Below, piece after piece: positions 31,737-49,819 of a stretch of DNA of 64,000 bases (the stretch's first letter is position 1; each line of letters starts with the position of its first letter). A model generated the notes under the pieces. The model was not told the DNA's origin. It did no database searches and saw nothing but the letters and a program-made list of their open reading frames with translations. The translations under genes and the position numbers were made by a program. This DNA comes from Bacteroides sp. Lineage in GTDB: Bacteria > Bacteroidota > Bacteroidia > Bacteroidales > Bacteroidaceae. The DNA lies in NCBI GenBank assembly GCA_021203515.1, contig JAJQAY010000011.1, positions 1 to 64,000 of the forward strand. The letters are read 5' to 3'.

Positions 31737-33344
31737 ATGGCAAATTTAGATTTAAGCAAGTACGGTATCAAAGACACAGTGGAAATCATCCACAACCCGT
31801 CTTATGATGTATTGTTCGCAGAAGAGACTAAGCCGTCTCTGGAAGGCTTTGAAAAAGGTCAAGTAACTGAACTCGGTGCTGTTAACGTAATGACAGGTGT
31901 TTATACCGGTCGTTCTCCTAAAGATAAATTCTTCGTTATGAATGAAGCCAGCAAGGATTCTGTATGGTGGACTTCAGACGAATACAAAAACGACAACAAA
32001 CCCTGCTCTGAAGAAGCATGGGCTGACCTGAAAGCTAAAGCTGTTAAGCAGTTGAGCGGCAAGCGTCTGTTCGTTGTCGATACTTTCTGTGGCGCTAACG
32101 CTGCTACTCGTATGAAAGTTCGTTTCATCGTAGAAGTTGCTTGGCAGGCTCACTTCGTAACTAACATGTTCATCCGCCCGACTGCCGAAGAACTTGCTGC
32201 TTACGGAGAACCCGATTTCGTATGCTTCAACGCTTCTAAAGCAAAAGTTGAAAACTACAAAGAACTGGGCTTGAACTCTGAAACTGCTACTGTATTCAAC
32301 TTGAAGACAAAAGAACAGGTTATCCTGAATACTTGGTACGGTGGTGAAATGAAGAAGGGTATGTTCTCTATCATGAATTACATGAACCCGCTTCGTGGTA
32401 TCGCTTCTATGCACTGTTCAGCCAACACGAACATGGAAGGTACTGACACTGCTATCTTCTTCGGTCTGTCCGGTACAGGTAAGACTACTTTGTCTACCGA
32501 CCCGAAACGTAAGTTGATCGGTGACGACGAACACGGATGGGATGACGAAGGTGTATTCAACTACGAAGGTGGTTGCTACGCTAAGGTTATCAACCTCGAC
32601 AAAGAAAGCGAACCCGATATCTACGCTGCCATCAAGCGCGACGCTCTGTTGGAGAACGTAACTGTTGCAGCTGACGGCAAGATTGACTTCGCTGATAAGA
32701 GCGTAACTGAAAACACTCGTGTTTCTTATCCTATCTACCACATCGACAACATCGTTAAGCCTATCTCTAAAGGTCCTCACGCTCACCAAGTAATCTTCTT
32801 GTCAGCTGACGCCTTTGGTGTATTGCCTCCGGTATCTATCCTGAACCCGGCACAGGCTCAGTACTACTTCCTGTCTGGTTTCACTGCTAAGTTGGCTGGT
32901 ACAGAACGTGGTATCACTGAACCGACTCCGACATTCTCTGCTTGTTTCAGTGCTGCTTTCTTGAGCTTGCATCCTACTAAATATGCAGAAGAACTGGTTA
33001 AAAAGATGGATAAGGTTGGCGCTAAGGCATACTTGGTTAACACAGGTTGGAACGGTAGCGGCAAGCGTATCTCTATCAAAGATACTCGTGGTATCATCGA
33101 CGCTATCCTTGACGGTTCTATCGACAAGGCTCCGACGAAGGTTATCCCTTACTTCGATTTCGTAGTTCCTACTGCTCTCCCGGGTGTTGATCCGAAGATC
33201 CTTGATCCTCGCGACACTTATGATCGCGCTTGCAAGTGGGAAGAAAAAGCAAAAGACTTGGCTGGCCGCTTCATCAAGAACTTCACTAAGTTCACCGGTA
33301 ACAAAGCTGGTAAGGCTTTGGTTGCTGCTGGTCCGAAACTCTAA
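31737..33344 (+). CDS. pckA: phosphoenolpyruvate carboxykinase (ATP)
   Basis: A 535-residue cytosolic enzyme interconverting oxaloacetate and PEP. In Bacteroides it mainly fixes CO2 on the route to succinate. It has the kinase P-loop GLSGTGKTTLS near residue 243, the metal-binding segment GDDEHGWDDEG, the PCK-specific YTGRSPKDKF and the C-terminal NTGWNGSGKRIS. The codon choice is strikingly uniform, as for a highly expressed gene. Its last eight codons and terminator are repeated at 49762-49819, bounding the island that follows. Confidence 0.97.
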   Translation: MANLDLSKYGIKDTVEIIHNPSYDVLFAEETKPSLEGFEKGQVTELGAVNVMTGVYTGRSPKDKFFVMNEASKDSVWWTSDEYKNDNKPCSEEAWADLKAKAVKQLSGKRLFVVDTFCGANAATRMKVRFIVEVAWQAHFVTNMFIRPTAEELAAYGEPDFVCFNASKAKVENYKELGLNSETATVFNLKTKEQVILNTWYGGEMKKGMFSIMNYMNPLRGIASMHCSANTNMEGTDTAIFFGLSGTGKTTLSTDPKRKLIGDDEHGWDDEGVFNYEGGCYAKVINLDKESEPDIYAAIKRDALLENVTVAADGKIDFADKSVTENTRVSYPIYHIDNIVKPISKGPHAHQVIFLSADAFGVLPPVSILNPAQAQYYFLSGFTAKLAGTERGITEPTPTFSACFSAAFLSLHPTKYAEELVKKMDKVGAKAYLVNTGWNGSGKRISIKDTRGIIDAILDGSIDKAPTKVIPYFDFVVPTALPGVDPKILDPRDTYDRACKWEEKAKDLAGRFIKNFTKFTGNKAGKALVAAGPKL

Positions 33345-33379
33345 TAGAACCAGATTACATATTTTTAAGGCGGCTTCCG
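33322..33379 (+). repeat. left copy of the 58-bp direct repeat (pckA 3' end)
   Basis: This stretch runs from the last codons of pckA through the first arm of its terminator. The same 58 bp recurs at 49762-49819 with a single difference (CCG versus CCA, synonymous within the Pro codon). The pair brackets about 16.4 kb of glycan-utilization genes. Confidence 0.9.
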
Positions 33380-33401
33380 TTGCCGGAAGCCGCCTTTTTT
33401 G
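33367..33401 (+). terminator. terminator of pckA
   Basis: The stem GGCGGCTTCCG / CGGAAGCCGCC with a short loop is followed by TTTTTT, 23 nt after the pckA stop codon. A textbook rho-independent terminator. The first arm lies inside the 58-bp direct repeat. Confidence 0.88.
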
Positions 33402-47287: not shown

Positions 47288-49758
47288 ATGACAACAAAAA
47301 AAAGCTTTATTTATTTCTTATCAGTTCTTTATTGGCCTTGTCCGCAGTCTATGCCGGACAAACAGACTATACACAAGGACTTTCCATTTGGTTTGACACC
47401 CCAAATACCTTGCAGGGACACACTGTCTGGTACGGTTGGAAGGATGAAAACAAACCGGAAACAGCCCGCAATCCGGATGCAGCATGGGAGTCGCAATCAT
47501 TACCTATCGGAAATGGAAATATAGGGGCTAATATTATGGGCTCGGTTGAAGCAGAACGTATTACTTTTAATGAAAAGACACTTTGGCGGGGCGGCCCTAA
47601 TACAGCGAAAGGTACAGATTGTTACTGGAATGTCAATAAGCAATCGGCACATGTCCTGGATGAAATACGTAAAGCATTTACGGAAGGAGACCAGGAAAAA
47701 GCGGAGAGATTGGCAAGAGAGAGTTTTAATAGTGAAGTGCCTTATGAGGCTTATCGGGAAAAGCCTTTTCGCTTCGGTAGTTTCACGACGATGGGCGAAT
47801 TTTATGTGGAAACCGGGCTGAATATAATAGGTATGAGTGACTATAAGCGCATACTGTCCTTGGACTCCGCTATGGCTGTGGTGCAGTTTAAAAAAGATAA
47901 TGTGGCGTACCAGCGGAATTATTTTATTTCTTATCCTGCCAACGTACTGGTTATTCGCTTTAGTGCCGACCAACCGGGTAAGCAGAATCTGACATTCAGC
48001 TATGCCCCTAATCCTGTATCGACAGGCAGTATGGCGGCTGACGGCGATAATGGGTTGGTTTATTCAGCCTCATTGGATAATAATGGAATGCAATATGTAG
48101 TCCGTATTCAAGCGGAGGCAAAAGGTGGAACATTGGTAAATGCAAATGGAAAGCTTACCGCGAAAGGAGCAGATGAAGTGATCTTTTATATTACTGCGGA
48201 TACTGATTATCAGGCAAATTTTACTCCTGACTTTAAGAATCCGAAAACGTATGTGGGCGTAAATCCTGCTGAAACAACTCGTCAATGGATAGATAATGCG
48301 GTGGCAAAAGGCTATGCGCCTTTGTTGAACGAACATTATCAGGATTATGCTGCGTTGTTCAACCGGGTGAAGTTAAGTTTGAATCCAACGATGAAAGGTG
48401 AGAATTTACCAACCGGACAGCGATTGAAAAATTATCGGAAGGGGCAATCTGATTATTATCTAGAAGAACTCTATTATCAATTCGGCCGTTATCTTCTGAT
48501 TGCAAGTTCCCGTCCGGGTAATATGCCGGCTAATTTGCAAGGTATCTGGCATAATAATGTCGATGATCCTTGGCGTATTGATTATCATAATAACATAAAT
48601 ATTCAGATGAATTATTGGCCTGCCTGTTCTACAAACTTGGAGGAATGTATGTCGCCGTTAATTGACTTTATCCGCACATTGGTGAAACCGGGCGAGAAAA
48701 CAGCCCAGTCTTATTTCGGTGCAAGAGGCTGGACTGTATCCATCTCCGCTAATATTTTTGGTTTTACTGCACCATTAGAGAGCCAAAATATGTCGTGGAA
48801 CTTTAATCCGATGGCGGGGCCGTGGCTGGCTACTCACATTTGGGAATATTATGATTACACAAGAGATTTGAAATTTTTGAAAGAAACGGGATATGAACTG
48901 ATAAAAAGCAGTGCTGATTTTGCCGTTGACTATTTATGGCATAAGCCGGACGGAACTTACACTGCAGCACCGTCTACCTCACCCGAACATGGTCCTATCG
49001 ATCAGGGAGCTACGTTTGTACATGCCGTAGTGCGCGAAATCTTGTCAGATGCTATCGAAGCGAGTAAAGTGCTGGGAATAGATAAGAAGGAACGTAAGTA
49101 ATGGGAACATGTGCTTTCTAATCTCGTTCCTTATAAGGTAGGTCGTTATGGGCAATTAATGGAATGGTCGGTTGATATCGACGACCCGAAGGATGAGCAC
49201 CGCCATGTAAATCATTTATTCGGACTGCATCCGGGACATACAGTTTCTCCAATCACTACTCCTGAATTGGCGGAAGCTGCCAAGGTGGTATTGGTGCACC
49301 GGGGTGACGGAGCTACCGGTTGGAGCATGGGATGGAAGTTGAACCAATGGGCCCGTTTGCAGGACGGAAATCATGCGTATACCTTATTTGCCAATTTACT
49401 GAAGAACGGTACGCTTGATAACCTGTGGGATACACATCCTCCTTTCCAGATTGATGGAAACTTTGGTGGTACAGCCGGCATTACAGAGATGTTATTGCAA
49501 AGACATATGGGATTTATCCAGCTGCTTCCTGCTTTGCCGGACGCATGGAAAGAAGGTTCTATTCATGGCATATGTGCGAAGGGGAATTTCGAGGTCGATA
49601 TAGCATGGAAGAATGGACTTTTGAAAGAAGCCGCGATCCTGTCAAAATCAGGAGAAAGATGTATCGTAAAATATAGTGGTAAAACTTTATCTTTTAAAAC
49701 TGTGAAAGGACGCAGTTATCAACTTAAATATGATAATAAAGAATTGAAAATAATGTAG
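47288..49758 (+). pseudogene. GH95 family alpha-L-fucosidase, signal-peptide frameshift and internal stop
   Basis: GH95 enzymes release alpha-1,2-linked L-fucose (a few act on galactose). Family signatures are GNMPANLQGIWHNNVDDPW, HNNINIQMNYWP and GGTAGITEMLLQ. Start at ATG 47288 (MTTKKSFIYFLSV). Lesion 1: one T missing near 47323 in the signal peptide; the correct frame (LALSAVYAGQTDYTQG) follows. A TTG at 47332 could start the mature part without a functional signal. Lesion 2: TAA at 49099-49101 (K*WEHVLSNLVPYK, CAA expected), which removes the last 220 residues. Pairing with GH110 suits blood-group B/H glycans. Confidence 0.9.
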
Positions 49759-49761
49759 TAT

Positions 49762-49819
49762 TTGCTGCTGGTCCAAAACTCTAATAGAACCAGATTACAT
49801 ATTTTTAAGGCGGCTTCCG
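49762..49819 (+). repeat. right copy of the 58-bp direct repeat (pckA 3' end)
   Basis: This repeats the pckA 3' end, including its AAGPKL stop codons and the first terminator arm, immediately after GH95. It has 57 of 58 bases identical to 33322-33379. It contains no gene here because no pckA frame leads into it. It marks the right boundary of the island. Confidence 0.9.

What the first reader, a model, noticed from the sequence alone, without database searches (positions are those of the whole stretch)
33322..49819. 16.4-kb glycan island bracketed by a 58-bp copy of the pckA 3' end
The last eight codons of pckA plus the start of its terminator (33322-33379) recur at 49762-49819 with 57 of 58 identical bases. 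The only difference is a synonymous change, suggesting the right copy came from another pckA allele or has drifted as a remnant. Everything between is a susCD-type locus. This resembles integration into a gene's 3' end that rebuilds the gene, or recombination of a donor fragment carrying its own pckA tail. No integrase is visible inside, so the mechanism is unclear. The nitroreductase gene would be the original neighbour of pckA.
Basis: partly seen in the sequence, partly recalled or inferred. Interest (0 to 1): 0.8.

Follow-up and report, generated by a model that had tools for sequence, protein, structure and literature searches.

The report
Decayed glycan island behind pckA
A 16-kb set of sugar-foraging genes was inserted just after a core metabolic gene in a gut Bacteroides, leaving a second copy of that gene's tail at the far side; no integrase was found in it, and five of its eight genes are broken.

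Summary
The repeat is real and longer than reported: 81 nt (33322-33402 and 49762-49842), i.e. the last 20 coding bases of pckA, its stop and its whole terminator. 57 of the first 58 bases match; the terminator loop and 3' arm have diverged. It brackets 16,359 bp. The genus is Bacteroides. In all five genomes of the window's sister clade (42-genome tree, supports not examined) pckA is followed directly by the nitroreductase gene, so an empty site exists and the island was most likely gained. Both repeat copies carry the intergenic type of that clade. The insert is a susCD-type locus; 5 of its 8 genes are broken. It lacks the sigma/anti-sigma pair that precedes susC in two relatives, though two others lack it too. 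Of 54 other pckA loci (not a random sample), 15 hold a related GH95 or GH110 gene downstream, so this place is a recurrent home for such genes. I found no integrase inside, and none of the 54 stretches shows a pckA-tail repeat. Best reading: integrase-free entry at a known kind of Bacteroides genomic node, with an illegitimate join that duplicated 81 bp. The mechanism is inferred; an integrase attachment site is not excluded.

The parts
31737..33344 (+). pckA, ATP-dependent PEP carboxykinase, intact, left node gene
   Evidence: PF01293 E 7e-199; 90-92% nt to the seven empty-site genomes used
33322..33402 (+). left copy of the 81-nt repeat: pckA 3' end, stop and terminator
33403..34181 (+). left end of the island, no gene recognised; no trace of the sigma/anti-sigma genes used as queries
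   Evidence: 33403-34300: apart from matches of susC itself, best E 0.17; no clear relative except 34150-34328, 75% to G127, which is mostly the start of susC
34182..37370 (+). susC-like gene, broken (2 in-frame stops, 2 frame changes against G061)
   Evidence: PF13715, PF07715
37383..39386 (+). susD-like gene, broken (2 stops, 2 frame changes against G061)
   Evidence: PF07980
39405..39893 (+). DUF5018-related protein, open against G061
   Evidence: PF22243 E 1.1e-24
40106..41236 (+). HGSNAT/DUF5009-type membrane protein gene, broken (1 stop)
   Evidence: PF07786, PF16401
41251..44290 (+). GH123-type gene, broken into five pieces
   Evidence: PF19543
44315..46150 (+). GLAA/B-type gene (family label GH110 is recalled), open against G127
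   Evidence: PF23763, PF23764; 78% nt to G127
46150..47238 (+). S41-family peptidase-like protein, open frame of 362 aa (not compared with a relative)
   Evidence: PF03572
47299..49758 (+). GH95-type (alpha-L-fucosidase) gene, broken by one in-frame stop
   Evidence: PF22124, PF14498, PF21307; 84% nt to G127
49762..49842 (+). right copy of the 81-nt repeat, 3 bp after the GH95 stop, running on into the native nitroreductase upstream region
49874..50530 (+). nitroreductase, intact, likely ancestral right neighbour of pckA
   Evidence: PF00881 E 1.7e-28
50636..52573 (-). typA/bipA GTPase, intact, right node gene
   Evidence: PF21018 BipA_C E 2e-45

Best explanation
A susCD-type locus, or a fragment of one, entered an ancestral pckA-nitroreductase junction without an integrase of its own. 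It joined on the left at or just after the pckA terminator and on the right 20 coding bases before the pckA stop, so 81 bp of the recipient (pckA tail plus terminator) is present twice. One end was probably guided by short shared sequence at the terminator, and the other closed by illegitimate joining or a template switch. Both neighbours kept their ends: pckA keeps a full tail and terminator, the nitroreductase keeps its native upstream region, and the right copy now sits behind the island's last gene. The island is decaying. Shown: the repeat, the empty site in relatives, the recipient-clade type of both copies, the broken genes, the recurrent presence of related genes behind pckA. Inferred: the joining mechanism, the order of events, and any loss of regulator genes.
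For: Empty site in all five sister-clade genomes (G128, G018, G165, G138, G031) and in six more of 54 loci. The right copy runs on into the native flank: 84-87% over about 140 bp to G128, G031, G138, G022 and G018, 84% to G083, 82% to G165. Both copies have the empty-site clade's intergenic type, unlike G127, G131, G080. The copies differ by 1 base in 58, against 2-3 for the left copy and 3-4 for the right copy versus five relatives, and the differing base is the right copy's alone among these. The last pckA block before the insert gives 0.87-0.93 to the near genomes and 0.83-0.91 to the others. No integrase in 18 island ORF pieces and no match in the window to 15 own-genome integrases, some of them partial. 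15 of 54 pckA loci hold a related GH95 (at least 67% protein identity) or GH110 (at least 62%) gene.
Against: One genome only; no reads, no second strain. The donor is not sampled: susCD is closest to G061 (76% nt), where a colinear locus lies 2.3 Mb from pckA along the contig, while GH110 and GH95 are closest to G127 at the pckA node. GH95 relatives are common elsewhere too (45 of 158 genomes, many not near pckA). pckA block 32139-32272 is closer to G132 (0.95), G129 (0.93) and G127 (0.92) than to the seven empty-site genomes (0.89-0.91), though G047 is at 0.96, so some exchange inside pckA is possible. A direct repeat of a gene's 3' end around an insert is also the classic look of integrase attachment sites, and 81 bp is long for a simple join. 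The left end has no known relative, so the breakpoint and any microhomology cannot be read. By raw identity G047 and G056, with a 1.5-kb insert, rank fourth and fifth.
Confidence: 0.5

Rival explanations
1. Site-specific integration: the pckA 3' end is the attachment site of a tyrosine-recombinase island whose integrase was lost or acts in trans; the 81-bp repeats are attL and attR.
For: Direct repeat that keeps the gene's 3' end, empty site in relatives, a hairpin in the repeat. The genome has 18 PF00589 matches above the curated cut-off, none on the window's contig.
Against: No integrase found in the island (18 ORF pieces by Pfam; 15 integrase queries). None of 54 pckA stretches shows a tail repeat; 16 of them hold the nitroreductase beyond an insert of 0.45-12 kb. 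Among the rows listed for 16 genomes, no PF00589 match lies inside a pckA insert (weaker rows were not listed). Related genes sit at other places or without repeats in relatives.
Confidence: 0.23
2. The locus was at the pckA node ancestrally; the right tail copy arose later by a separate duplication or gene conversion, and relatives with pckA-nitroreductase lost the locus by deletion.
For: 15 of 54 pckA loci hold a related GH95 or GH110 gene. G088 has pckA-PUL-nitroreductase with a weak terminator-like stretch before the nitroreductase.
Against: The window nests with five empty-site genomes, and the 8 of 15 locus-bearing genomes that are on the tree fall in another clade in which no nitroreductase was seen in the stretches held. 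The G088 match is weak: 0 of 300 shuffles, but 4 of 4,200 random windows and 2 of 531 promoter windows reach it, and 17 loci were tested.
Confidence: 0.15
3. [quoted passage not shown]
For: Same node, no mobile genes; model in PMC8845570 (passages) and PMC5635113 (passages). One inner pckA block is closer to G132, G129 and G127 than to the empty-site genomes.
Against: The blocks next to the insert are not donor-like, the native flank resumes inside the pckA tail rather than in a right node gene, and a tail repeat is not predicted. typA was not scanned in blocks.
Confidence: 0.08
4. Assembly chimera at the right junction of a draft genome.
For: 151 contigs, single assembly; G041 and G038 contigs end at the pckA tail.
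Against: By eye the island side (GH95 end) and the tail share no overlap that could mis-join, the copies differ in sequence, and the junction lies inside a 69-kb contig.
Confidence: 0.04

Closest known systems
PUL exchange between core 'genomic nodes' without mobile genes in Bacteroides (PMC8845570, passages seen)
   Same: Variable susCD loci beside core genes, no mobile-element genes, different content in different species.
   Different: Here the right junction is not in a shared node gene: 81 bp of the recipient-type pckA tail is duplicated, and the locus is decaying.
HGT hotspots without mobile elements (PMC5635113, passages seen)
   Same: Turnover beside a core gene with no recognisable integrase.
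   Different: That model uses recombination in flanking core genes; near the insert no recombined segment is seen in pckA, with one ambiguous inner block.
Integrative islands and IMEs using a gene's 3' end as attachment site (recalled)
   Same: Direct repeat of the 3' end that keeps the gene whole; empty site in relatives.
   Different: No integrase found, circular form not testable, no other pckA stretch with such a repeat.
Homology-facilitated illegitimate recombination (recalled; the term occurs in PMC8504540, PMC6382021, PMC4437187, listing and abstract starts only)
   Same: Would yield one guided and one illegitimate junction, with a duplicated recipient segment.
   Different: The guiding homology and any microhomology cannot be shown, as the donor is unknown.

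Membership tests
Integrase-type genomic island | direct repeats at both ends matching the empty target site | tested here: met
   81-nt repeat; empty site in relatives
Integrase-type genomic island | integrase gene or remnant inside | tested here: not met
   18 island ORF pieces by Pfam and 15 own-genome integrases as queries; small and antisense ORFs not scanned by Pfam
Integrase-type genomic island | same site used with repeats in other genomes | tested here: not met
   0 of 54 pckA stretches have a tail repeat (stretches of at most 20 kb for most); weak hint in G088
Integrase-type genomic island | excised circular form | not testable with these tools
   no reads available
Genomic-node PUL (PMC8845570) | variable PUL between two core genes shared across species | tested here: met
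   11 of 54 loci near-empty (nitroreductase within 150 bp), 15 of 54 with a related GH95 or GH110 gene; typA seen beyond it in 8 of the 15
Genomic-node PUL (PMC8845570) | recombined donor-like segment in the flanking node gene | tested here: inconclusive
   12 blocks of pckA: none donor-like next to the insert, one inner block (32139-32272) ambiguous; typA not scanned in blocks
susCD-type PUL | adjacent susC and susD homologues with glycoside hydrolases | tested here: met
   PF07715, PF07980, PF19543, PF22124
susCD-type PUL | linked regulator | tested here: inconclusive
   sigma/FecR pair in G127 and G061, no match in the window; G131 and G014 show none on the + strand either; other regulator types not sought
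Homology-facilitated illegitimate recombination | one homologous and one microhomology junction with known donor | tested here: inconclusive
   no donor found in 158 genus genomes or in 399 family genomes drawn from a larger group (2 of them besides the own genome match, at 76% and 70%)

The most novel reading that the evidence does not exclude
The pckA terminator hairpin is a replication-stall or strand-switch point at which foreign glycan loci are captured without integrases. Each capture copies the recipient's gene tail, so the gene stays whole and the insert can later be lost cleanly by recombination between the two tails. The right terminator loop (ACAA) resembles the inverted left loop (TTGC, reverse complement GCAA) rather than the left loop itself, as a strand switch at a palindrome would give.
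Probability: 0.12. Interest if true: 0.75.

Novelty: new member of a known kind. Interest (0 to 1): 0.42.

Why it matters
In B. ovatus and B. xylanisolvens most variable regions were not associated with mobile functions (PMC8845570, passage), so how such loci move is open. A readable scar in one lineage, with empty sites in sister species, gives a concrete case to test. It also shows a fate of such an insert: the island's genes break while its neighbours stay whole.

Tried and rejected
Repeat as a dispersed sequence: rejected, two places only in the own genome. Second pckA-tail matches in G041 and G038 as further islands: rejected, both sit at contig ends and look like assembly overlap. Foreign donor pckA tail: disfavoured on intergenic type; pckA blocks are mostly but not wholly in line. 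Sequencing error as the cause of the broken genes: unlikely, since seven sense rows against B. rodentium (L162), covering six flanking window genes, show no stop (I dropped four rows that lie antisense to real genes, three of them with one stop). Left-end truncation: the sigma/anti-sigma pair of G127 and G061 is missing here, but G131 and G014, which carry the locus at pckA, show none on the + strand either, so I claim it only as possible. Exact 41-base tail pattern: 0 matches in genome contigs and 0 in viral contigs, which may hide the own genome. Protein searches for the GH95 fragment and GH110: the 100% GH110 cluster has 3 members and 1 contig, the next is 83%, so strain prevalence could not be read. 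Loop inversion: 3 of 4 loop bases match inverted against 0 of 4 direct, about a 5% chance by my own estimate, a hint only. G088 remnant: weak, and the T-run before the nitroreductase also occurs in G056, G072, G042 and G047, which have no such terminator there. Literature: searches; by titles none listed an island at pckA in Bacteroides; most subscription papers are not held. On re-checking I lowered the best explanation from 0.52 to 0.50 and raised the flanking-recombination rival from 0.06 to 0.08 because of the ambiguous pckA block.
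Full report
The repeat. Window bases 33322-33379 recur at 49762-49819 with 57 of 58 identical. The copies align further, over 81 nt to 33402 and 49842. The unit is the last 20 coding bases of pckA, its stop and its whole terminator through the T-run. In the own genome (4.32 Mb, 151 contigs) a 98-base query finds only these two places. The differing coding base is the right copy's alone among five relatives compared, as expected for a copy that no longer codes.

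The empty site. The genus is Bacteroides: G140, of the same genus, has a contig of the same length (216,488) as B. rodentium JCM 16496, and G129 one of 718,224 as B. faecalis. pckA was found in 141 of 158 genus genomes at E <= 1e-30, the own genome included. I examined 56 stretches downstream of pckA or at its tail, chosen by closeness or for island genes, not at random; 54 carried usable pckA and two (G041 C11, G038 C32) held only a tail at a contig end; a third short piece (G041 C15, L086) was left out. In 11 of 54 the nitroreductase lies within 150 bp of pckA, in G074 at 209 bp, in 16 at 0.45-12 kb, and in 26 it was not seen in the stretch held. On a midpoint-rooted tree of pckA plus typA with the window and 41 of the 54 (13 dropped for lack of a usable typA; supports not examined) the window is sister to G128, G018, G165, G138 and G031, all empty. 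By raw identity the order is G138, G165, G128, G047, G056, and the last two have a 1.5-kb insert. Gain in the window's lineage is the shorter reading.

Which copy is native? Both look so. The right copy continues into the native flank (84-87% over about 140 bases to G128, G031, G138, G022, G018; 84% to G083; 82% to G165). The left copy is 93% to G018 from the stop through the terminator, then diverges at 33403. G127, G131 and G080, which carry the locus behind pckA, have a different intergenic type; G088 has one like the window's clade. In 12 blocks of pckA the window mostly follows the empty-site genomes, and the block next to the insert does; block 32139-32272 is an exception, closer to G132 (0.95), G129 (0.93) and G127 (0.92) than to the seven empty-site genomes (0.89-0.91), with G047 at 0.96.

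What the insert is. susC, susD, DUF5018-related, HGSNAT/DUF5009-type, GH123, GH110, S41 and GH95 genes, all on the + strand (the labels GH110 and the enzyme activities are recalled or from source names). Against relatives' intact proteins, susC, susD, HGSNAT, GH123 and GH95 carry stops or frame changes; DUF5018 and GH110 are open; S41 is an open frame that was not compared. Six flanking genes compared with B. rodentium show no stop. Protein identity is above DNA identity for GH95 (89% and 84% to G127), so the decay is probably recent. Sigma-70 and FecR proteins lie between pckA and susC in G127 and before susC in the colinear G061 locus; G040 and G088 have ORFs that read alike (not tested by Pfam), while G131 and G014 show none on the + strand. 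The window has no match to those queries.

Where its relatives live. A GH95 gene of at least 67% protein identity lies downstream of pckA on the same strand in 13 of 54 loci; GH110 of at least 62% adds G088 and G040, 15 in all; typA is seen beyond it in 8 of the 15. GH95 matches occur in 45 of 158 genomes, many not near pckA or on other contigs. susCD is closest to G061 at 76% DNA identity; that locus is colinear for susC, susD, DUF5018, HGSNAT, GH123 and GH95 but lies 2.3 Mb from pckA along the contig. A genome of another genus (G224) has the next at 70%. So the window's locus is a mosaic or comes from an unsampled lineage.

Mobility. No integrase in 18 island ORF pieces and no match in the window to 15 integrases of the own genome, some partial. 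In 16 genomes with pckA inserts the listed PF00589 matches fall outside the inserts (the list was cut). No pckA-tail repeat in 54 stretches, and a more sensitive look at 17 loci gave one weak hint, G088.

Mechanism. A donor fragment joining at the terminator on the left and 81 bp upstream on the right explains why both copies are recipient-type and why no integrase is needed. A site-specific element explains the repeat equally well in form but needs a lost integrase and an attachment sequence of the same clade's type. I prefer the first at 0.50 and keep the second at 0.23.

Known or new. Exchange of such loci between core nodes without mobile genes is described for B. ovatus and B. xylanisolvens (PMC8845570, passages), and hotspots without mobile elements generally (PMC5635113, passages). 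This case belongs to that kind; the duplicated pckA tail is its unusual detail. I found no report of it in searches.

Noticed in passing
31410-31473: Tandem array of the 8-mer ATTAGCAT just upstream of pckA.
   Followed up: no
33376-33396 and 49807-49827: The right terminator loop matches the left loop in inverted orientation better than directly, a possible hairpin flip (I2).
   Followed up: partly
G061 C1:3462000-3499999 (L143, L228, L229): Colinear relative of the island with its own sigma/FecR pair at a different chromosomal place.
   Followed up: partly
G041 C11/C15 and G038 C32 (L086-L088): Contigs break at the pckA tail; could reflect strain variation at this site.
   Followed up: no
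G000 C96:14233-16469: Second GH95 gene in the same genome, 69% DNA identity to the island's.
   Followed up: no
window 32139-32272: Block of pckA closer to G132, G129, G127 and G047 than to the empty-site relatives; possible small exchange inside pckA.
   Followed up: no
108-5748: Radical SAM protein, outer-membrane beta-barrel protein and peptidase C39 ABC transporter side by side, possibly a peptide maturation and export set.
   Followed up: no
55726-63209: Sialic-acid set on the minus strand: NanM/SASA/GDSL protein and a BNR sialidase.
   Followed up: no
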